Source: Tychonema bourrellyi FEM_GT703 (GTDB lineage: Bacteria; Cyanobacteriota; Cyanobacteriia; Cyanobacteriales; Microcoleaceae). From it: 37,956 nucleotides of DNA. The stretch's first letter is position 1. Every line of letters starts with the position of its first letter. A model generated the notes under the pieces. That model was given only the letters and a program-made list of their open reading frames with translations. It had not been told where the DNA came from and did no database searches. The position numbers and the translations under genes were made by a program. Below are positions 5,911-32,339 of this stretch, piece by piece. The stretch spans positions 1-37,956 of the forward strand of contig NZ_NXIB02000018.1 in the NCBI RefSeq assembly GCF_002412335.2, given 5' to 3'.

Positions 5911-6246
5911 CTATGCAACTCCAAACCCTGTATACTCTCGCGCATAGGGAGGCTGAACTCCTAACACGATCTCTTCTTTGGCAATCCCCATTTGTACTAA
6001 TTCATCAGCAAAACTTCGATCGGTTTGATTGCGCTGAATCCAAATTTTTCCATCTTTGATATCTAAGTGAATGAAGCAGTTATAAATACGGTCATGTTCA
6101 TTCCATCCTAAATCGATAACCAGATAGCGATCGCGTTCTTTGTCAAAAACGAATTCTACTTCTATCTGACCATTAATCGGTGGGTCTTCACCCGATTCGA
6201 GCAGTAACTTTTCGATGCACTGGCGATAATAATCTAGTCGATCCAT
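5911..6246 (-). CDS. XisI-like fdxN element excision controlling factor
   Basis: This 111-residue protein matches the XisI family: the opening MDRLDYYRQCIEKLLLESG, the acidic middle with YLVIDLGWNEHDRIYNC, and the end with KEEIVLGVQPPYAREYTGFG. XisI was named from the system that controls excision of the fdxN element in heterocysts. However, many xisH/xisI pairs occur in cyanobacteria without such an element, so the role here is unknown. It overlaps the 3' end of the upstream xisH gene by 13 bp, so the two are expressed together and the products probably form a complex. No fdxN gene or excision element is visible in the window. Confidence 0.87.
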   Translation of the reverse strand: MDRLDYYRQCIEKLLLESGEDPPINGQIEVEFVFDKERDRYLVIDLGWNEHDRIYNCFIHLDIKDGKIWIQRNQTDRSFADELVQMGIAKEEIVLGVQPPYAREYTGFGVA

Positions 6247-6653
6247 TTGACTATTTCCTCCCGTACTGGGTTGTATACAATAATTTTAACTTGATGTCTT
6301 TTGACTGATGCTTTGGGTAATTCGCGTTGAAAGAACGATTCGTAAGAGGCAAGTGGAACTGCTAAATATAAGGTACGCTCTGGATCGAGTTCTTCTAAGA
6401 CTAAGCGATAATTCAAAAATTGTCCCAAGGCTGTATGAAAATCAGCTAATGCGGAATCGTTCAAGAAACTCTTAATTTCGACTGCGATTTTCTCTCCTGC
6501 TTTCTCTGCACCCAAGAGTCTTTCTGCTCCCAAGTCAATCTCCACGCGCTCGTTTTTTGCATACTCAAGCTTCAATGGATCGTGAGTAACCTTCCATTTT
6601 TCTTTTTCAAGACCCCTCTTTACCGAATCATGAAATTTATCTTTAGCTGCCAT
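6234..6653 (-). CDS. XisH-like protein (PD-(D/E)XK-type fold)
   Basis: This 139-residue protein matches the XisH family. It opens with KDKFHDSVKRGLEKEKW, then has VEIDLGAERL (D40) and KIAVEIKSFL (E59, K61). This is the D...E-x-K arrangement of restriction-endonuclease-like folds, so a nuclease activity is possible though not established here. It is the first gene of a two-gene operon with xisI, with which it overlaps by 13 bp. The pair sits between a toxin-antitoxin-like pair and a large restriction-methylation gene, which fits a mobile or defence-related block. Confidence 0.86.
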   Translation of the reverse strand: MAAKDKFHDSVKRGLEKEKWKVTHDPLKLEYAKNERVEIDLGAERLLGAEKAGEKIAVEIKSFLNDSALADFHTALGQFLNYRLVLEELDPERTLYLAVPLASYESFFQRELPKASVKRHQVKIIVYNPVREEIVKWID

Positions 6654-6724: not shown

Positions 6725-9700
6725 TTACCGATCGCTTCCAACTTCCGCCAAATGCCAGAACGTCATCCCATTTTCCGCATGACTGAGCAAAATCCCCAAA
6801 TCTTCCAAGCTTTCTAGACAGTCGAGAATGACTTTTTGTTTGCGATTGGCGCCTTTGAAATGGGCGGTGACTTGGGCGGCTGTCCATTCGCCGCTTTGGG
6901 TGCGGAACAAGTCGCGGATAGCGGAAAGTTGCTCTTTGAGGGTTTTGGGGAAGGGTTGCTGTTCCGTGGGGGAGACGGCAATTTCGGTTTCGGTTATGAT
7001 ACCTGCAAGGGATGGTTGGACGTAGGTTTCGCCGGGGGCTTGGTAGTCGGGACGCAGCCAGCGAATGAGTCCGTTGCGTTCTTCTTCGGCGCGTTGGGCG
7101 TTGAGGGTGACGAGGTTTTCCAGGATTTGGTCGTCGGTGAGGGTTGGTTCCCAATCATAGGCGGCAAATACGGCGCGATCGAGTTCGTCGTGGATTTGTT
7201 TGAGGGTGGAGACTAGGGCTTTTTGGTTGAAGGCTTTGTCTTTGTCATCCAGGGGTTCGCCTTCGCGGAGTTTTTCGAGGAGGTTGTACATCCCGGTGAT
7301 GGTGACTTCGGGGTGAGTGGCTTGGACTCGTTTGCGGTGGCTATCGAGGCGTTCTCCGAGTTCTCGGATGGTTTGTTTTTGGGTGTCGGTTGGAGTCGGG
7401 AAGGGGAATGGGTCGAAGCAAACGGTTTGGACATAAACAGGGGTCGGACCAAGCTGCCCGCCACATACTAATGCCCATTTAACATGAATTTGACTAGAAA
7501 GAACTCCCAAGAAATAAGCATCATCTAAAGCGATCGCAAGAATTTTCTGATCGGGAATAACTTTAGTATCAATAAAAGTGAACACACGATGCTTACTGGT
7601 TTGCGTACTACCTATATAACGAGATATCGTTTTTAGAGCAGGGCGGAAACTTGAACGCGGTTCGGCGAAAATCCACCATTTTTCGCGATAGGCTGGACGA
7701 TTGTTCTTTTCACGCTCTGGTTTGACACGCTCATAAATCCATTGGTAGACATTCGGATAACGAGCAAAAACTTCATTTTCTGTTAGTCCAAATAGATCTA
7801 TGACTAATGCTTTTCTTGAAAATTGTAGCAAGTCACGACCATTTAGATAAGGGTGAATTACTTCTGTCTCCAAGTTCTTTGCTTCTGCTTCTGTCAAACA
7901 AAAACCCATACCATGAAGTTTCACCCCAAGACAACCTAACTTCTGATTACCATTGAGAGAAACCGCACTATAAACATCAGTTCCAGCTTGAAGATTGCTA
8001 AATATTTTTCCTGCATTTTTCCACTCTATTTTAATTTCTTCTGCGGAATTTTCTGGTTTTTCTGCTTCAGATTCACGAATTACGAGTCCCAATTTAATTA
8101 GTCTCGATGTGTCATAATTACTAAGTTCACATACCGTCATAGAAATTCTGACCTGTGCGCCATCATCAGTCCAAGGGTGATCGGGAATGGCATAAATTAA
8201 CCGAAGTGGATTTTTCGGATTTAACAAGTGAAAATCTATAACTTTTTTTTGCCAAACCTGACGAATACTATTTGTTGTGATAAACCCAAATATGTTAACA
8301 TTTCTAGCACGTACTACCTCTGCTGCTTTGTGCCACCAGTACATCACAAAATCAACTGTATCCGGTACATCTTTATAAACTTTTCTCAATGTTTCGACAT
8401 ACCCATCTCCCAAAATTTCGCGCATTTTACGATTCCCAATAAACGGCGGATTCGACACAATATAATCCGCCTCCTGCCACCCGGCCGCCCTTGGATTCAA
8501 ATACCGATAAATTGTTACTTGGTTTGTCGGATCGGGAATATCGTCCCCTGTCACCGGACTTTTCATCATCCGTCCACCCCAACGAGTTCTCACCTTCCCC
8601 AACCCATCCACATCCGGTTCGATCGCATCATAGGCCAACACCGCATCCCGGCATTCAATATTGTTGTACTCTCGCAACACAGGTTCGATCGGCGGAATAT
8701 CGCCAAACCGCCGAAAATGCCACTGCAAATATCCAATCCAAATCACCAAATCCGCGATCGCCGCCGCCCTCGGATTGATCTCAATTCCCAAAAACTGACT
8801 CGGATTAACTTGAGCAATATCTAACCGCAACTGCGCCGATCCGGTGACATCCTCCAAGCGCCGCAACACCTCCGACTCCAACCCCTTCAACAAATCCAAT
8901 GTCACATACAAAAAATTCCCCGATCCGCACGCCGGATCGAGAATCTTCACCTGTTGTAACTCCGTCAGAAATGCCTCTAAAACCGCGATCGCCTTTTTCC
9001 TTTGATTCGCAGTCGGTTCCGATTCCCCCGCGTTGAGTAGCTGTTTAACCTCCGCTTGTACCGCAATCCAGCGATCGCCCAAAGGCTCCATCACCACAGG
9101 CTTTACCAATCTTTCCACATACGATCGCGGCGTATAATGCGCCCCCAACTTACTCCTCTCCCGTGCATCCAGCGCCCTTTCCAACAAAGTCCCAAAAATC
9201 GCCGGTTCCACATTGCACCAATCCCGCTTCGCCGCCTGTAACAATACTTCTAACTGCGCCTTTGTCAACGCAAACGCCTGGGATTCGGCAAACAATCCGC
9301 CATTAAACCGCAACAGTTGGCCATGAAAACCAAAACTCGTCCCCTCATTCATCGCCTCCCACAGCGCCTCTACCTCCGGCTTAAACATCTTCGGGTTAAG
9401 AATCCACCGCGTTTCCAGCGCCTGCGTAAACAAATGTTCTTTCAGCAACCCCACATCCTCAGCAAACATGGTAAAAATACAGCGCATCAAAAACTGGGCG
9501 ACTTGCTGCGGATCGACATTCGCCTCCATTCCCTTCGCCAACTCTGCCAAATCCGCCGCCACTTCCCGCGTCACCCGCGCCGCAATTTTCTCTGGGTTGC
9601 GCTGCTGTGGATTGCTAAATATATCGACAAACAAATCGAAAACATCCGGCTTTCGCAACTCTGTCAATCCAATATCTCGCCGCGCCCCATAGCCGCCGTA

Positions 9701-10144
9701 ATCGCCGCTAAAACCCATCCACAATTCAAAATGATCGCCAATATCACAAGTAAACAAAAACGGTGGCTTACTGGGCAAATTTCGCGTATAAGAAACGGCT
9801 TGCACAAACGCTTTTTCCATCTCTCGCAAATAGGTATTCGTTCCTCGTTTTGCCGTGCCTTTTTTGCTGGTTGTTCCGCCTTGTTTAGCTTCGATTAAAA
9901 AGTGTTCGGCTTTGTAAAAATCCACAAACCCCGAAGTTACTTGGCCGCTGGGGTGAAAAATTTTGACATCTTTATCAAAGCAGTAAGGATCGTTGGGAAT
10001 TCTGCCTTTATCCAAAGGGCGATCGACTCCCAGCGCATCACACATTTCCGCAAAAAACAACTGGTAGTTGGCGCGTTCGTTGCCGCTAGAACCTTCCCAG
10101 CGCGTGATGAATGTTTCGACTCTGGTGCGATCGGCTTCATTCAT
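6725..10144 (-). CDS. MmeI-like DNA methyltransferase/restriction protein (type IIG/IIL)
   Basis: This 1139-residue protein combines a putative nuclease and a DNA methyltransferase. Near the N-terminus is GFVDFYKAEHFLIEAKQ, where D75, E85 and K87 form a PD-(D/E)XK site. A helical spacer follows (about residues 180-395) with FGTLLERALDARER and LGAHYTPRSYV. SAM-binding motif I is LDPACGSGNFL (402-412), with FLGIEINPRA as the next element, and catalytic motif IV is NPPF (565-568), typical of N6-adenine methylases. The region after about residue 700 should be the target-recognition domain, followed by a C-terminal segment with a winged-helix look. This order matches MmeI-type single-chain enzymes, which methylate one strand and cut at a distance. 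Both active sites look intact. It is a single gene with no separate specificity subunit. Confidence 0.85.
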   Translation of the reverse strand: MNEADRTRVETFITRWEGSSGNERANYQLFFAEMCDALGVDRPLDKGRIPNDPYCFDKDVKIFHPSGQVTSGFVDFYKAEHFLIEAKQGGTTSKKGTAKRGTNTYLREMEKAFVQAVSYTRNLPSKPPFLFTCDIGDHFELWMGFSGDYGGYGARRDIGLTELRKPDVFDLFVDIFSNPQQRNPEKIAARVTREVAADLAELAKGMEANVDPQQVAQFLMRCIFTMFAEDVGLLKEHLFTQALETRWILNPKMFKPEVEALWEAMNEGTSFGFHGQLLRFNGGLFAESQAFALTKAQLEVLLQAAKRDWCNVEPAIFGTLLERALDARERSKLGAHYTPRSYVERLVKPVVMEPLGDRWIAVQAEVKQLLNAGESEPTANQRKKAIAVLEAFLTELQQVKILDPACGSGNFLYVTLDLLKGLESEVLRRLEDVTGSAQLRLDIAQVNPSQFLGIEINPRAAAIADLVIWIGYLQWHFRRFGDIPPIEPVLREYNNIECRDAVLAYDAIEPDVDGLGKVRTRWGGRMMKSPVTGDDIPDPTNQVTIYRYLNPRAAGWQEADYIVSNPPFIGNRKMREILGDGYVETLRKVYKDVPDTVDFVMYWWHKAAEVVRARNVNIFGFITTNSIRQVWQKKVIDFHLLNPKNPLRLIYAIPDHPWTDDGAQVRISMTVCELSNYDTSRLIKLGLVIRESEAEKPENSAEEIKIEWKNAGKIFSNLQAGTDVYSAVSLNGNQKLGCLGVKLHGMGFCLTEAEAKNLETEVIHPYLNGRDLLQFSRKALVIDLFGLTENEVFARYPNVYQWIYERVKPEREKNNRPAYREKWWIFAEPRSSFRPALKTISRYIGSTQTSKHRVFTFIDTKVIPDQKILAIALDDAYFLGVLSSQIHVKWALVCGGQLGPTPVYVQTVCFDPFPFPTPTDTQKQTIRELGERLDSHRKRVQATHPEVTITGMYNLLEKLREGEPLDDKDKAFNQKALVSTLKQIHDELDRAVFAAYDWEPTLTDDQILENLVTLNAQRAEEERNGLIRWLRPDYQAPGETYVQPSLAGIITETEIAVSPTEQQPFPKTLKEQLSAIRDLFRTQSGEWTAAQVTAHFKGANRKQKVILDCLESLEDLGILLSHAENGMTFWHLAEVGSDR

Positions 10145-27582: not shown

Positions 27583-27623
27583 GCGATCGCTATTCCTGTG
27601 AGTCGTGATTTCTAGGCGATCGC
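27583..27623. repeat. HIP1-capped repeat copy
   Basis: GCGATCGCTATTCCTGTGAG followed by TCGTGATTTCTAGGCGATCG is the same repeat as at 26170 and 30370. The orphan C-terminal gene fragment begins directly after it. Confidence 0.88.
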
Positions 27624-27629
27624 ACTTAA

Positions 27630-27803
27630 CCTACAAGATCAGCGATCGCGCCCTTTACTCACCGAACACCAGACCGAACCACACTACAGCGTCATGCGGA
27701 TATGATTGAACGTGGTAGTGTGGAAGGAATTGCGGAGGAGTTGGACTACGAAAATGTGAAGGAGCGGTATCTGGCTGCGGTGAAGGCGATCGGTCAAGTT
27801 TAA
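27630..27803 (+). pseudogene. Orphan C-terminal gene fragment
   Basis: A frame without a start near its beginning encodes about 57 residues with a convincing protein look, including TPDRTTLQRHADMIERGSVE and LDYENVKERYLAAVKAIGQV, and ends in TAA. A stop codon lies right before it, next to the HIP1-capped repeat. It looks like the end of a gene whose 5' part was removed when the neighbouring AT-rich module and repeats came in. I do not recognise the family. An internal ATG at 27702 could in principle give a 33-residue peptide. Confidence 0.5.
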
Positions 27804-27819
27804 TCAATCTGCGATCGCA

Positions 27820-28884
27820 CTATTTTTTGATTATGTAAAATGTTTGGTTAGGCTTTATTTTAGGCTCAACGCTAATACCAATATTTGTTTTTTCTATAAC
27901 TGCCAGTTCTGGATATGATTGATCATCTAATCGAATGGTCAAAATAGGCTTTTTATAAAATCTTCCTTCTTTAGTTTCAATAATTAGCATATCTTTAACT
28001 TTTATCGTATAGTTTTCAATCTCAAATGCTAATATTTTATCATTAAAAATTTTAATCACCTTTTCTATTTTTTGAAAAGTATGTATTGATTCTTGTTTGA
28101 TAAATTGTTCAAATAATGCTTGAAAAATAGCTTGACAATATTTTTCTAAAAATTGAATATAAGGTTCTAATTCAGATATGCTTTTGATATCCTCTACGTT
28201 TTCTGAACCGTGAGCAATTTGGTTTCGTCTTTCAACTAAATCATTGATTTTATTGTACAAAATATCTTTTCCTATTGTGGAAATTCTTTCTGGTGTTAAA
28301 CCGATCTCATTATTAAGTTCTTCATTCTTCAGTAATTCATCGTTTAAATCTAAACTTAACTTATTGAATATTTCTACAATTTTATTATGTTTTAAATTAC
28401 CTGATAAAAGAACAAACGCTTCTGTGTTAATTTGATAGTTGCTAGGATTAACAATACATTCATTTAACTTCTTTAATACCTCCTCTTTTTTAAGATGCTG
28501 ATATTTAGCACTTTCTCTGGTTGCAATAGTATTTATCAATTTTAAAGACAGTTCAAAATGATTAATTCTAATCTTTTCATCCACTTGATTATATTCAGGT
28601 ACTACTTTAGAGAGGGAATCAAGATATTCTTTAATCCAGATTTCTACATATTTTTCTAGCAGTCCATAAAGTGAAATAATAGAAGCTTTATATTCAAATA
28701 TTCGTTTATCTGTTCTAAAACCCCTATCATGCTCTTTTAGTCTATTAAGTAATTCCTTGATTTGTCCATTATCAGTGTCTATAATAGCATAAGCTGTTAA
28801 ATCATTTACATATTGAATGTGTTTTAAATATTCTTTAATTTGATTTAATTCTCTTTTGAAGTTTTCCAATGATTGTATATTCAT
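27820..28884 (-). CDS. HEPN-domain protein (MAE_28990/MAE_18760-like)
   Basis: This 354-residue protein is strongly helical. NDLVERRNQIAHG (about residues 214-226) has the R-x4-H motif of HEPN ribonucleases with R220, N221 and H225 intact. The N-terminal half (SIISLYGLLEKYVEIWIKEY) fits the MAE_28990/MAE_18760 HEPN-like family known from cyanobacteria. The C-terminal 90 residues are a beta-rich add-on with unknown role. The gene follows the DUF262 gene by 15 bp on the same strand, so both are one operon. Base composition is visibly AT-rich, with many ATT/AAT codons, and I saw no HIP1 site inside, unlike the flanks, which suggests horizontal transfer. A ribonuclease effector role is likely (inference). 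Confidence 0.84.
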   Translation of the reverse strand: MNIQSLENFKRELNQIKEYLKHIQYVNDLTAYAIIDTDNGQIKELLNRLKEHDRGFRTDKRIFEYKASIISLYGLLEKYVEIWIKEYLDSLSKVVPEYNQVDEKIRINHFELSLKLINTIATRESAKYQHLKKEEVLKKLNECIVNPSNYQINTEAFVLLSGNLKHNKIVEIFNKLSLDLNDELLKNEELNNEIGLTPERISTIGKDILYNKINDLVERRNQIAHGSENVEDIKSISELEPYIQFLEKYCQAIFQALFEQFIKQESIHTFQKIEKVIKIFNDKILAFEIENYTIKVKDMLIIETKEGRFYKKPILTIRLDDQSYPELAVIEKTNIGISVEPKIKPNQTFYIIKK

Positions 28885-28899
28885 AATTTATATCAATAA

Positions 28900-30090
28900 T
28901 TAAATATAGTTTTTTAGGAAATTATGAAAATACTCAATGCGTGCTTCTACATCCTTTTTGTTATTGTATCTACCATCAAAAAGCGATCTATTATTTTCTT
29001 CTTTGATATATAGCAATTCTTTATTTGAATATAGATTACTTTTAATGTCAGCTTTATTTCTGAGTAGACTTTCCTTATGGGGAATATTATTTGCAAACAC
29101 CTGCATTATTGGATCATAAATAGTTTTTAATGGTGTTTTTCTATCACGCTGTTCTTTTGGAGGGATGAAAGCTGAATCCCCTAATATAGAATAAATCAAC
29201 TGAATAGTTTGTTGGAAAATATTTTCAAGATTTTCAATCGTTTGATCTGAATAGTTATTTGCTTGTTTTAAATATTCATCTAAAAATTTATCCACTGGAG
29301 ATTTTAAATTCTCTATATGACGATAAGCAAAGAATCGCAAAACTAATTCTACATCTTCCATTTTGCGATAAGATTCACTTTCAAGTAACTTTTCTTCCCC
29401 TTCACTTTCTAAGGGTAAGTTCCACATTTTACGGAAAGGGTCATTTTCAGAAAGTTTTATACATAGTCGGTTAAACTTGCCATTGTGTAAGGCATTTCTT
29501 GTTTCTTGTGCAGTTAGCTTCTCTCCTCCACTATTCAATCTTTCAAAAACTATCTGTTTGAGATATTCAGCTTCTTCTTTACTTTTAGCTGTTTCTTGCA
29601 ATAAAATAATAGAAGACAAATATCGTCTATCTATACCTTTTTGAACTTGCTCAGGTAAATTTTGATAATTTCGCCCGTTAAGTTCCTGCCAATACTCTAA
29701 TCCTTCTAGCTCAAATTTTCCTTTATAAAAATCATATATAGCTGTCAGTCTTTGTTGTCCATCCATTACTTCATAAATAGAATAGTCTATTTCATACAAA
29801 AAAATAGGTGGAATAGGTACATTCATTATGAATGATTCTATTAAACGAGATTTTCGAGTATTGTTCCATCTTTTACGACGTTGGTATTCAGGATTTCGGA
29901 TATATTTTGCACTGTCAAGCATAGCTTCTATACTATCAAGTGGATAACGAGCTTGTTCTGTTACAATTCTTATCTCTCCCTTTTTGTATTTTTCGTTAAT
30001 TTCATCATCTGGCGGAAAGTTGTGAGTTGTATCTGGTCTATTTTGAGAAATATATGTTTCACCTGAAATTAAATAGCTATTTGTAATCAT
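28900..30090 (-). CDS. DUF262 (GmrS/ParB-like nucleotide-sensing) protein
   Basis: This 396-residue protein belongs to DUF262, the ParB-like N-terminal domain of GmrSD type IV restriction enzymes. NPEYQRRKRWNNTRKSRLIE (residues 66-85) and YEVMDGQQRLTAIYDFYKG (with D110-G-Q-Q-R114) are the typical motifs; DGQQR is thought to bind or hydrolyse nucleotide. ERLNSGGEKLTAQETRNAL follows. No DUF1524 HNH nuclease half is present, so the HEPN protein encoded 15 bp downstream may provide the nuclease. The gene is AT-rich like its partner. It could be the sensing or activating subunit of a two-part anti-phage system. That is inference from gene pairing and domain roles. Confidence 0.88.
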   Translation of the reverse strand: MITNSYLISGETYISQNRPDTTHNFPPDDEINEKYKKGEIRIVTEQARYPLDSIEAMLDSAKYIRNPEYQRRKRWNNTRKSRLIESFIMNVPIPPIFLYEIDYSIYEVMDGQQRLTAIYDFYKGKFELEGLEYWQELNGRNYQNLPEQVQKGIDRRYLSSIILLQETAKSKEEAEYLKQIVFERLNSGGEKLTAQETRNALHNGKFNRLCIKLSENDPFRKMWNLPLESEGEEKLLESESYRKMEDVELVLRFFAYRHIENLKSPVDKFLDEYLKQANNYSDQTIENLENIFQQTIQLIYSILGDSAFIPPKEQRDRKTPLKTIYDPIMQVFANNIPHKESLLRNKADIKSNLYSNKELLYIKEENNRSLFDGRYNNKKDVEARIEYFHNFLKNYI

Positions 30091-30343
30091 ATTTATTCTT
30101 CCTTGTTAATTATGAGATCAATGAGTGCACGACAACTAGCGGCTTGGGTTAAGTGCGATTATTATGGGTTGCTATGCCCACTTTTTTTGATGAAGCGAGG
30201 TCACCGCTCTTTTGGGTCGGCTTAATAAAATTACTCCAAGTAACAGTTTAGTGCAATCGCCGATCTTTTAGGGGCATTATAACTGTGTTTTTGGCTAACT
30301 GTCAAGTTACTACGATCGCTTTCTCCGATGAAGGACGATCGCC

Positions 30344-30493
30344 TCAATTATCTATCTGCTAAAGGTTTTGCGGTATGCGATCGCTGTTCCTGTGAGTCGT
30401 GATTTTTAGGCGATCGCATCAATTATCTATCTGCTAAAGGTTTTGCGGTATGCGATCGCTATTCCTGTGAGTCGTGAGTTCTAGGCGATCGCT
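30344..30493. repeat. Two 75-bp tandem copies with the HIP1-capped repeat
   Basis: A 75-bp unit (TCAATTATCTATCTGCTAAA, then GGTTTTGCGGTATGCGATCG, then the HIP1-capped sequence) occurs twice in direct tandem at 30344 and 30419 with a few differences. It lies upstream of the AT-rich DUF262-HEPN operon. Copies of the inner part are at 26170 and 27583, so the module is bracketed by this repeat. Confidence 0.9.
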
Positions 30494-30715: not shown

Positions 30716-31158
30716 AGATTGCTGCTGATGAAGCAATTTATGGAACGAGGTGCGATGTTCCGCTACTACTCCTTGCCGATCGCGCTGCCATCTTTCCTGG
30801 ACACAGTTTGACACACCTGTTATTTTTCAAAGCCAAGATTTAGAAAGCAATGCCTGATGTCTAGCTACCTAGAATCAAAATCTCATCCTTCAGAGAGGTA
30901 GCAAGCTGCTAGTTTACTGCCAGGATTGGGGTGAGGTGGAGTAGATTGAAGCAAATCTCAAAGCGGCTTTAGTAAAGGTTCAAACTGAGCAGGAAGTTCA
31001 GGTAGGATAGCCTCACTTTTTTTGCGACGATCCTCCGCGCCGACAGACAATTTATTAACGATAACTAGAGATTTACAGCGGTCATGCTTCGCCCCTAGGA
31101 ATATATTTGCCAAACACAGATGCACCCAATAAATTAGCCTATTCAACCCACGAATAAA
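30716..31158. other. Degenerate intergenic stretch
   Basis: About 440 bp without a convincing gene. Short broken frames (for example one with EANLKAALVKVQTEQEVQVG near 30950-31008, closed by stops on both sides) suggest former coding sequence. No RNA gene or known repeat was seen. Confidence 0.45.
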
Positions 31159-31344
31159 ATGATTACTCATCAATCTCAAGCGACGCAGCCCGTCACGCCA
31201 CCCAACCATAATAGTGAAACCCTGCTGCCAGCAAATCGCGTTGCAGTCTTACTTGCAGGGTATGGTGAAGTACAATCTTATCGCGATCTGAGTAGTTACA
31301 ACCAAGCTGCAACACTGATACCAATTTTTTATGAAGCTGCATAG
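31159..31344 (+). pseudogene. 5' fragment of a ferrochelatase-like gene
   Basis: The frame begins MITHQSQATQPVTPPNHNSE and goes on with NRVAVLLAGYGEVQSYRDLS and SYNQAAT. The LLAGYGEVQSYRDLSSYNQ part closely resembles the N-terminus of a cyanobacterial ferrochelatase-like (HemH-like) protein family with GYGEVESYEDF. Only about 54 residues remain before the sequence runs into a nested repeat at 31318, which supplies the final codons and stop. Nothing of the rest of the gene is recognised beyond the insert. The product would be non-functional. Confidence 0.6.
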
Positions 31345-31462
31345 AATTCGATCCCCCCTAACCCCCCTTAAGAAGGGGGGGACAAGAGTCCAATCAAAGT
31401 CCCCCTTCTTAAGGGGGATTTAGGGGGATCGGAATATGTGCAACTTCACATTAAATTGGTAT
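31318..31462. mobile_element. Nested repeat element (ATACCAATTT ends with a family A core inside)
   Basis: The outer ends ATACCAATTT (31318) and AAATTGGTAT (ending 31462) are inverted, and the inner bases TGAAGCTGCATA and TATGTGCAACTTCA pair imperfectly. Inside, 31350-31430 is the C-rich/G-rich core shared with the elements at 21474, 34173 and 1. It therefore looks like one element inside another. It interrupts the ferrochelatase-like gene. Confidence 0.65.
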
Positions 31463-31504
31463 GAACTCATTTTTTATCGACTCGCATATCAAGGAGATTA
31501 TTTT

Positions 31505-31828
31505 ATGACTACCTCAAATCATAGCCACTATTTTCAAGATATTAGGCATCTTCATCGCATACTTGCTCCCATTATGTTGTTGCCTCTATTGCTGACAACT
31601 ATTACAGGGACGGTTTATCAGGTCGTTGATTTGGCAGGCCAAGAAAAAGCGTTTAAGTGGTTATTACATTGGCACAAGGGACATTTTGGAGCACTTAATT
31701 TAGAAGTCATTTATCCCTTCCTGAATGCTCTCGGCTTGTTCCTATTACTTTTTACGGGAATTTCGATGTGGCAACGTTCGCAGCATAGTTCTAAAAAGCA
31801 ATCTACTGAGGTTAAAAGCAATGATTAG
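31505..31828 (+). CDS. Small PepSY-type membrane protein
   Basis: This 107-residue protein has two hydrophobic segments, LAPIMLLPLLLTTITGTVYQ and FLNALGLFLLLFTGISMW, separated by a loop with LLHWHKGHFG. The arrangement resembles the PepSY-associated transmembrane family of small cyanobacterial proteins, often near iron or heme genes. An AAGGAG lies 8 bp before the ATG at 31505. The frame further upstream, back to 31436, is repeat sequence. The stop overlaps a degenerate copy of the ferrochelatase gene start (31821), so this gene was probably followed by that gene in an earlier arrangement. Confidence 0.72.
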   Translation: MTTSNHSHYFQDIRHLHRILAPIMLLPLLLTTITGTVYQVVDLAGQEKAFKWLLHWHKGHFGALNLEVIYPFLNALGLFLLLFTGISMWQRSQHSSKKQSTEVKSND

Positions 31829-32339
31829 TCATTAATCTCAAGGGACGCAGCCGTCGCGCCACTTAACAACAAACCTGTTTGGGCAACTATTCTAGCGTTG
31901 TTTTTGGGTGGAGCTTTTTTTGTATGGGTTAATGGGCTTCTCAAATTGAGCAAGAATCGACTGCGTGGTATCGATCTCAATACTGTGAGTTTGGCGATTT
32001 TTCTCAGCATTGCGATCGACTTATTTGGTGATGGCTTAATGATTGGCACCAGTCTGACGATCGCGCCTCATCTAGGGGTAGTGCTGGCATCGGGGAGAGT
32101 TGTGGCTCACATTCCAGAAGGATTTATCACTAATGCAGCGTTTAAGAGTCAAAATATGCCGCGGACAAGGCGAGCTTCCCAAGCTAATTGTGCTGGCATT
32201 TACCACAGGCACTTTAATCGTAGCGATCGCGGAAGAAATTATTCCTGAAGCGCATCAAACTCAAGATACAAACTGGTCTACTTTAACGTTTATCGGAAGT
32301 TTTGCACTTTCAATCCTGTTCTCGTCTTATATTAAATAG
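31829..32339 (+). pseudogene. Frameshifted ZIP-family metal transporter
   Basis: One frame reads NKPVWATILALFLGGAFFVW, AIFLSIAIDLFGDGLMIGTS and VVAHIPEGFITNAAFKSQN, and another frame continues with KLIVLAFTTGTLIVAIAEEI and IPEAHQTQDTNWSTLTFIGS, together matching the C-terminal part of ZIP-type transporters. Reading must shift near 32170-32185, where some 25 residues of a membrane segment also seem lost. The N-terminal membrane segments are missing. It is most likely a dead gene of a zinc or iron transporter, or two leftover pieces. Confidence 0.78.

What the first reader, a model, noticed from the sequence alone, without database searches (positions are those of the whole stretch)
27820..30090. 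AT-rich DUF262 + HEPN two-gene operon: candidate defence system
A DUF262 protein with intact DGQQR (GmrS-like, but without the DUF1524 HNH nuclease half) is followed after 15 bp by a HEPN protein with intact R-x4-H. Both are strongly AT-rich and, as far as I can see, contain no HIP1 site, while repeats with HIP1 ends lie on both sides (27583-27623 and 30344-30493). The domain roles suggest that DUF262 senses a modified nucleic acid or nucleotide and HEPN cuts RNA, an abortive-infection-like logic. The gene families are known, but I know of no established mechanism for this exact pair.
Basis: partly seen in the sequence, partly recalled or inferred. Interest (0 to 1): 0.78.

Follow-up and report, generated by a model that had tools for sequence, protein, structure and literature searches.

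The report
Two-gene phage defence with EF-Tu-like barrel
A mobile two-gene bacterial module, of a kind one member of which is known to block phage T4, here carries a predicted RNA-cutting enzyme with an extra domain shaped like part of the translation factor EF-Tu, which hints that it may stop infection by attacking the protein-making machinery.

Summary
In detail: a DUF262 gene (30090-28900, minus strand) is followed after 15 bp by a HEPN gene (28884-27820), AT-rich and free of HIP1 sites, between HIP1-ended repeats. The pair is not new: a 2013 survey lists such operons, and a 2023 review gives both domains to PD-T4-2, an E. coli system that blocks T4. Of 55 genome loci found by HEPN alone, 54 have DUF262 directly upstream; in the other the contig starts inside HEPN. 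Plasmids and P2-like Vibrio phages carry it too. New here: the HEPN protein ends in an 85-residue beta-barrel that AlphaFold plus Foldseek liken to EF-Tu domain II; profile comparison agrees moderately. Close copies are mosaics; in one pair the foreign part is the DUF262 C-terminal half, in another the barrel, in others elsewhere. Most likely mechanism: DUF262 is an NTP-dependent infection sensor controlling a HEPN RNase that the barrel steers to tRNA or the ribosome. Pairing and conserved catalytic residues are shown; sensing, RNA target and phage defence are inferred. Defence-island enrichment was tested and not seen. Verdict: new variant of a known kind.

The parts
28900..30090 (-). DUF262 (GmrSD_N, ParB/Srx-like) gene, 396 aa; QR 70-71, DGQQR 110-114, FERLN 182-186
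   Evidence: Pfam PF03235 1.1e-29; PADLOC NsnA 1.1e-70 over 28-395 and PD-T4-2_A 9.4e-38; AF2 pLDDT 84.8
28903..29478 (-). codons 205-396 of DUF262: fast-changing C-terminal half, proposed sensor specificity part (inferred)
   Evidence: window vs G007/L053: dS 0.60 here against 0.14 in codons 30-204 and 0.02-0.04 in HEPN; highest mean dN (0.193) of the four segments over 66 pairs
28885..28899 (-). 15-bp intergenic gap
27820..28884 (-). HEPN gene, 354 aa; helical HEPN part residues 1-268 with E77, R220-N221-x2-A224-H225
   Evidence: Pfam PF18735 2.6e-27; E77, R220, N221, H225 in 57 of 57 aligned full-length proteins; AF2 pLDDT 90.8
27823..28077 (-). C-terminal beta-barrel of HEPN, residues 270-354, resembling EF-Tu domain II; proposed targeting part (inferred)
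   Evidence: Foldseek PDB: the 50 listed hits are EF-Tu or eIF5B entries; viral library ranks 1-3 are translational GTPases; hhalign Prob 63.9
30276..30305 (-). sigma-70-like promoter, 12 of 12 consensus (TTGACA-18-TATAAT), upstream of DUF262
   Evidence: consensus match only (24 sites of at least 9 of 12 found, mean 14.1 in shuffles)
27811..27818 (.). HIP1 site at the left module edge; alignments to the copies in G007, G023 and L054 end here
30377..30492 (.). HIP1-bounded repeats at the right module edge
27583..27623 (.). HIP1-ended 41-bp repeat left of the module

Best explanation
A horizontally moving two-gene anti-phage module. DUF262 (NTP-binding ParB/Srx-like protein) is the sensor and regulator; its C-terminal half probably sets what is sensed. 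HEPN is the effector, a metal-independent RNase with the R-x4-H site, held inactive until DUF262 is triggered. Its C-terminal EF-Tu-domain-II-like barrel brings it to tRNA or the ribosome, so that cleavage of translation RNA stops phage growth, probably with loss of the infected cell. Shown here: the two genes, their near-constant pairing, conserved catalytic residues, transfer between lineages, the barrel (by model, and moderately by profile), mosaic alleles. Inferred: sensing, complex formation, RNA target, phage defence.
For: Pairing: DUF262 directly upstream on the same strand in 54 of 55 genome loci fetched by HEPN alone; the 55th contig starts inside HEPN. HEPN downstream in 8 of 11 viral-contig loci fetched by DUF262 and in 9 of 11 plasmid or phage DUF262 hits that I opened, two of them near-identical Vibrio phages. 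Catalytic residues: 57 of 57 (56 of 66 loci passed the length filter, plus the window). Mobility: phages and plasmids; operon 95.3% identical over 2462 bp in Oscillatoria HE19RPO, whose flanks match the window only in repeats and 166 bp; operon GC below flanks in 14 of 14 loci computed, of 55. A described relative with a phage phenotype: PD-T4-2. HEPN as the costly part: of 52 loci with both genes on the contig, HEPN is clearly broken with DUF262 open in 5, shortened at its end in 1 more, the reverse in 0. Barrel. DUF262 residues 201-396 differ by 26% between window and G007 while HEPN differs in 1 of 354, so that half is unlikely to be the HEPN contact.
Against: No experiment on this subfamily. 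PADLOC model PD-T4-2_B: 0 of 7 genomes or records tested. No defence-island enrichment: no PADLOC family matches more than 4 of 100 neighbour proteins, against 3 of 100 in the control. Barrel: whole-model TM about 0.18 with large rmsd; Pfam GTP_EFTU_D2 hits 1 of 8 C-termini, below cut-off (E 0.0061); hhalign against single domain II members ranges from 0.1 to 42 and is 0.6 for EF-Tu itself. Mosaic exchange is not confined to the two proposed parts: in L057/L058 the most diverged part is DUF262 codons 30-204 (dS 0.64), and over 11 close copies HEPN residues 26-50 and 176-200 and DUF262 residues 1-25 are less conserved than the barrel. Foldseek for DUF262 gave no hit at E up to 0.001. Some HEPN breaks may be draft-assembly errors; in one Vibrio phage DUF262 is the split gene.
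Confidence: 0.6

Rival explanations
1. An ordinary PD-T4-2-like system whose extra barrel is only a structural or dimer-stabilising add-on; the RNase acts on bulk RNA.
For: Many paired HEPN proteins lack the barrel: the 8 viral-contig partners have 239-296 aa and match the profile only to position 245-250; E. coli, Klebsiella and P24B2 partners have 177-239 aa.
Against: The C-terminal domain is kept in long HEPN proteins of cyanobacteria, Desulfococcaceae, Flavobacteriales, Micromonospora and others and resembles a translation-factor part.
Confidence: 0.25
2. A modification-dependent DNA restriction system like GmrSD or BrxU, in which DUF262 reads phage DNA and the HEPN is accessory or regulatory.
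For: DUF262 motifs as in GmrSD-type proteins; BrxU is Foldseek rank 3, E 0.4. Some related pairs lie near DNA methyltransferases: L027, L029, L038, L040 by annotation, L050 by my reading of the sequence.
Against: No DUF1524 domain. HEPN catalytic residues invariant in 57 of 57. Among the 25 families listed for neighbours of the cyanobacterial loci, each of the three MTase_II models matches 1 of 100 proteins.
Confidence: 0.15
3. A toxin-antitoxin (addiction) module in which DUF262 simply neutralises HEPN and maintains mobile DNA.
For: Two-gene operon with a toxin-like HEPN, on plasmids and prophages; HEPN is broken more often than DUF262.
Against: A pure antitoxin would not obviously need the invariant NTPase motifs or a fast-changing C-terminal half. 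PD-T4-2 defends against T4.
Confidence: 0.15

Closest known systems
PD-T4-2 (Vassallo 2022, PMC9519451; PADLOC PD-T4-2_A/_B)
   Same: DUF262 plus HEPN; the DUF262 matches PD-T4-2_A 9.4e-38. The review PMC10952713 lists DUF262 and PF18735 for it.
   Different: HEPN here has 354 aa with a barrel; the PD-T4-2_B model has 168 positions and finds nothing here. I did not have the PD-T4-2 sequences themselves.
PADLOC NsnA family
   Same: Best PADLOC model for the DUF262 protein, 1.1e-70 over 28-395.
   Different: The model NsnB matches other contigs of the genome, not this one. Two searches found no paper on Nsn.
Ribo L-PSP-HEPN / MAE_28990 HEPN operons with ParB (Anantharaman 2013, PMC3710099)
   Same: HEPN family and ParB-type neighbour already listed.
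   Different: EF-Tu, elongation factor, translation factor and beta-barrel do not occur in the held text.
GmrSD, BrxU, SspE, TgvAB, GrwAB type IV restriction
   Same: DUF262 with QR, DGQQR and FxxxN motifs.
   Different: They carry a DUF1524 nuclease; this system has a HEPN instead.
PrrC/RloC anticodon nucleases
   Same: NTPase-controlled HEPN RNase that cuts tRNA in the response to T4: the suggested logic.
   Different: ABC-ATPase in the same chain, no DUF262 mentioned in the passages read.
CoCoNuT type III-A (PMC11090510)
   Same: HEPN effectors in a system whose CnuH OB-fold has EF-Tu domain II among its best DALI hits: a precedent for translation-factor-like parts.
   Different: McrBC and helicase architecture, a different sensor.

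Membership tests
PD-T4-2 (PADLOC definition) | protein matching PD-T4-2_A | tested here: met
   9.4e-38 over residues 57-386, but NsnA scores higher
PD-T4-2 (PADLOC definition) | protein matching PD-T4-2_B beside it | tested here: not met
   0 of 7 genomes or records, the window's genome included, at E up to 1
PD-T4-2 (PADLOC definition) | protects against T4 | not testable with these tools
   no assay; reported for the E. coli system
DUF262-HEPN pair (broad kind) | DUF262 with QR, DGxQR and FxRxN motifs | tested here: met
   D110, G111, Q113, R114, F182, R184, N186 in 57 of 57; Q70 in 54, R71 in 56; position 112 is Q in 42
DUF262-HEPN pair (broad kind) | adjacent HEPN with R-x4-H | tested here: met
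   57 of 57 full-length pairs; one shortened copy, L107, lacks that stretch
DUF262-HEPN pair (broad kind) | recurrent pairing across phyla | tested here: met
   54 of 55 loci
GmrSD type IV restriction | DUF1524 HNH nuclease domain | tested here: not met
   no match in either protein at E up to 1
EF-Tu domain II fold (C-terminal domain of HEPN) | beta-barrel fold | tested here: met
   predicted only: strands 270-352, block pLDDT 88-95; Foldseek
EF-Tu domain II fold (C-terminal domain of HEPN) | sequence-profile relation | tested here: inconclusive
   hhalign Prob 63.9, E 6.6e-5; 50 column shuffles of each of two alignments at most 1.6; S1 decoy 0.4; single members 0.1-42
Toxin-antitoxin module | HEPN toxic alone and neutralised by DUF262 | not testable with these tools
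   needs expression

The most novel reading that the evidence does not exclude
A subfamily of DUF262-HEPN immunity in which an EF-Tu-domain-II mimic aims a HEPN RNase at aminoacyl-tRNA ends or the ribosomal factor site, and in which nature exchanges two specificity parts independently: the DUF262 C-terminal half (what triggers) and the barrel (what is cut).
Probability: 0.25. Interest if true: 0.75.

Novelty: new variant of a known kind. Interest (0 to 1): 0.5.

Why it matters
The DUF262-HEPN pair is widespread, yet in the texts I saw nobody says what it senses or cuts. The barrel gives a concrete, testable guess about the RNA target. The natural mosaic alleles (window, G007, HE19RPO), with most of the operon nearly identical and a few stretches changed, are ready-made pairs for finding which part sets specificity.

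Tried and rejected
HIP1 avoidance as separate evidence of foreign origin: rejected, base composition explains it. Enrichment near known defence genes: not seen; 100 of 157 neighbour ORFs (up to two on each side) from 44 cyanobacterial loci against 100 of 127 control ORFs from the stretches. The control by chance held CRISPR genes, and the tool shows only the first 25 families, so the test is weak. Co-evolution: Mantel r 0.94 over 57 pairs (0 of 2000 permutations reach it) is largely shared phylogeny; within the 12 close copies r is 0.55 (11 of 5000). A scan of viral contigs with the HEPN alignment gave no relative. Peptidase_U32_C in the own genome: none. Solved structures by sequence: nothing convincing for HEPN (best E 0.23); BrxU 7p9k at E 0.0089 for DUF262. 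NsnA literature: none found. DefensePredictor (passages): DUF262 does not occur in the held text. The first ATP-synthase decoy was mis-framed and redone.

Rows dropped. Damage census: L064 (contig starts in HEPN, which also holds an insertion), L066 (contig end) and L106 (a stop 49 bases before the contig end) left out, leaving 52 of 55. Clearly broken HEPN with open DUF262: L084, L092, L096, L104, L107; L105 shortened at the C-terminus; both genes damaged: L065. Motif counts: 10 of 66 loci failed the length filter. GC against flanks: 14 loci that I chose, of 55.

Full report
What is there. The span holds two minus-strand genes: DUF262 (30090-28900, 396 aa), 15 bp, HEPN (28884-27820, 354 aa). 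Pfam gives GmrSD_N 1.1e-29 and HEPN_RiboL-PSP 2.6e-27, the latter ahead of HEPN_MAE_28990 2.8e-11; neither protein matches DUF1524. PADLOC gives NsnA 1.1e-70 and PD-T4-2_A 9.4e-38 for DUF262; for HEPN only a chance-level Cas2 match (E 0.075). GC is 28.2% against a mean of 46.0% (sd 2.0%) in 623 overlapping windows of equal length outside. A 12-of-12 sigma-70-like promoter lies at 30305-30276 (consensus match only).

Is the pair real? Yes. A scan of the species-genome collection with a HEPN alignment returned 55 loci. DUF262 is directly upstream on the same strand in 54; in the other, L064, the contig starts inside HEPN. Of the 20 loci that one search kept for the HEPN protein from the window's genome and its relatives, DUF262 was detected in 16; the other four lie at contig edges, two of them on one gene. 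Eight of 11 viral-contig loci fetched by DUF262 have HEPN downstream; the three without match DUF262 at about 30% over 140 residues. Of 11 plasmid or phage DUF262 neighbourhoods that I opened, 9 have HEPN, two of them in near-identical Vibrio phages; the exceptions are an E. coli IncF plasmid gene (H10) and an Acinetobacter three-gene set (H6). A Tabrizicola mobilizable plasmid found by HEPN also has the pair. In 57 aligned full-length pairs (56 of 66 loci, plus the window) the HEPN residues E77, R220, N221, H225 and the DUF262 residues W75, E85, D110, G111, Q113, R114, F182, R184, N186, R198 never vary; position 112 is Q in 42 of 57.

What is known of the pair. Anantharaman 2013 (passages seen) lists Ribo L-PSP-HEPN 'operon with ParB' and MAE_28990 'In operon with a ParB nuclease and DNA methylase genes'. 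Mariano and Blower 2023 (section 6 and passages seen) list DUF262 and PF18735 among the domains of PD-T4-2. Vassallo 2022 (section 7 and passages seen) reports that deleting PD-T4-2 in ECOR65 strongly raises T4 plaquing; whether it acts by abortive infection is marked only in a figure, which is not held. The PD-T4-2_B model (168 positions) finds nothing in the window's genome or six records. So this is the same broad kind, but not a PD-T4-2 by that definition. Text searches for DUF262 with HEPN, NsnA, PF18735 and HEPN with EF-Tu terms brought up no report of a barrel on this HEPN family; papers of subscription journals are mostly not held.

The barrel. The AF2 model of HEPN (46 sequences) has mean pLDDT 90.8: helices to residue 268, then strands 270-352. 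Foldseek against the PDB gave 860 hits at E up to 10, 33 at E up to 0.001; the 50 listed are all EF-Tu or eIF5B entries by title, best E 1.8e-4, listed probability 1.00. TM for the whole model is about 0.18 with rmsd near 17, because the barrel is a quarter of the chain. In the viral library ranks 1-3, and by name 10 of the first 14, are translational or other GTPases; one has rmsd 3.7 over 90 columns; only rank 1 is at E up to 0.001. Profile comparison with seven domain II sequences of the host gives Prob 63.9, E 6.6e-5, 67 columns (46 rows) or 53.4 (18 rows); 50 column shuffles of each reach at most 0.8 and 1.6, a reversed profile 1.2, an S1 decoy 0.4, an ATP-synthase barrel 0.1, the HEPN half 0.05. 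Against single members it is uneven: 42 and 18 for two, 6.5 for one, under 1 for EF-Tu itself and three others. In the same crude test five members reach 97-99 against the rest of their family, EF-Tu only 4.6 and one other 13 (which member is EF-Tu is my reading of its length and neighbour). I take the fold as likely and common descent as open. Paired HEPN proteins of the viral contigs, E. coli, Klebsiella and Arthrobacter are too short for it.

Mosaic alleles. G007, whose contig has the length of RDXX01000029.1 (an Oscillatoriales MAG), carries the operon at the same locus. HEPN is 99.7% identical in protein (98.8% of 86 four-fold sites), DUF262 codons 1-200 95% (96.7% of 60), codons 201-396 only 74% (68.3% of 41), and the flanking ABC gene 94% (75.2% of 250). 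In Oscillatoria HE19RPO the operon is 95.3% identical over 2462 bp, although the flanks match the window only in repeats and a 166-bp gene end; dS is 0.01, 0.05 and 0.01 for DUF262 codons 30-204, DUF262 205-396 and HEPN 1-265, but 0.39 for the barrel. Over 66 pairs of close copies mean dN is 0.081, 0.193, 0.141 and 0.171 for those four segments. Against a neat reading: the HE19RPO copy also differs in DUF262 residues 1-25 and HEPN 101-150; over the 11 close copies HEPN 26-50 and 176-200 are less conserved than the barrel; in L057/L058 the DUF262 N-terminal part is the most diverged (dS 0.64), and in L055/L056 HEPN differs more than DUF262 30-204. The operon is thus a mosaic throughout, and DUF262-C and the barrel as exchanged specificity parts remain an inference from one pair each. 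One point follows more firmly: DUF262-C can change by a quarter while HEPN changes by one residue, so it is unlikely to be the HEPN contact.

Mobility and the HIP1 repeats. Operon GC is 27-30% in ten close copies whose flanks range from 35 to 49%, and below the flanks in all 14 loci computed. Seven other genomes of the genus keep the neighbouring ABC gene at 91-95% identity. One, G007, has the operon beside it. Of six fetched, the stretch beside the gene was read in five, and it holds other genes there, such as a CHAT-like gene (G025), a HEPN/nuclease-like gene (G016) or AlkB-like plus methyltransferase-like genes (G022); these names are my reading, not a search result. Of 10 alignment ends at the module edges that I inspected, 8 lie at a HIP1 site (G007, G023 in the form GCGATTGC, HE19RPO, G022 twice, G025, G016 twice) and 2 do not (G016 at 27807 and 27599). 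I did not count ends elsewhere, such as a junction of 30845 to 32295 shared by four genomes, or test the number against chance. HIP1 octamers thus often mark the seams; whether they drive movement is untested. The 41-bp repeat occurs 4 times in the assembly, all near this operon, one at the 3' end of the acetyltransferase gene.

Decay. Of 52 loci with both genes on the contig, HEPN is clearly broken with DUF262 open in 5 (one of them, L107, has lost profile positions 132-267, the catalytic stretch, but keeps the barrel), shortened at the end in 1, both genes are damaged in 1, the reverse is seen in 0. HEPN also carries an insertion in G023, a deletion in G008 and a stop in the Nostoc plasmid. 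In one Vibrio phage (L032) it is DUF262 that is split. This fits a costly effector; draft errors may add to it.

Mechanism. DUF262 domains of BrxU and SspE bind and hydrolyse NTPs; in SspE hydrolysis couples recognition to the nuclease (PMC10952713 section 6). HEPN R-x4-H enzymes are described as metal-independent RNases, and PrrC and RloC as NTPase-controlled HEPN enzymes that cut tRNA in the response to T4 (PMC3710099 passages). I therefore propose sensor (DUF262), release or activation of HEPN, and cleavage of translation RNA directed by the barrel. That EF-Tu domain II contacts the aminoacyl end of tRNA and the small ribosomal subunit is recalled. Confidence: defence module 0.8, HEPN as effector RNase 0.85, barrel as translation-directed targeting part 0.45, DUF262-C as trigger specificity 0.45.

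Against it. There is no phage data for this subfamily; defence-island enrichment was looked for and not seen; the DUF262 model finds ParB, BrxU and Noc only weakly, none at E up to 0.001.

Noticed in passing
G000:C11 (L049), G000:C58 (L050), G000:C271 (L052): Three more DUF262-HEPN pairs in the same genome, with HEPN ORFs of 219-230 aa; the C271 DUF262 ORF has only 177 aa. The C58 pair lies beside what reads as a cytosine DNA methyltransferase.
   Followed up: partly
G000:C79:4655-5257 (L051): A HEPN gene next to what reads as a ParA-like ATPase, an arrangement listed for MAE_18760 HEPN in PMC3710099.
   Followed up: no
window 6725-10144: Type IIG restriction enzyme-methyltransferase in one open ORF (PADLOC REase_MTase_IIG, E 0), beside XisH and XisI genes at 5911-6653.
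   Followed up: no
window 27642-27807: Fragment matching the 3' end of a gene that is longer beside the operon in HE19RPO (L054 6798-8132); it lies between the left repeat and the module edge.
   Followed up: partly
window 31320-31460: A 60-nt inverted repeat (82% complementary, 21 nt between the arms), MITE-like, next to a short piece of a gene that is longer in G027.
   Followed up: partly
L207 6393-7355 (G016): At the same variable locus, a gene that reads as HEPN-like plus nuclease-like; possibly another defence cargo.
   Followed up: no
L046 440-1878 (G023): An insertion of about 1.4 kb inside HEPN; the two matching ends overlap by 8 bp, as a target-site duplication would give.
   Followed up: no
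L066 (Desulfobacterales HSG2): DUF262 70% identical and the first 90 HEPN residues 67% identical to the cyanobacterial proteins, suggesting transfer between phyla or a contaminant contig.
   Followed up: no
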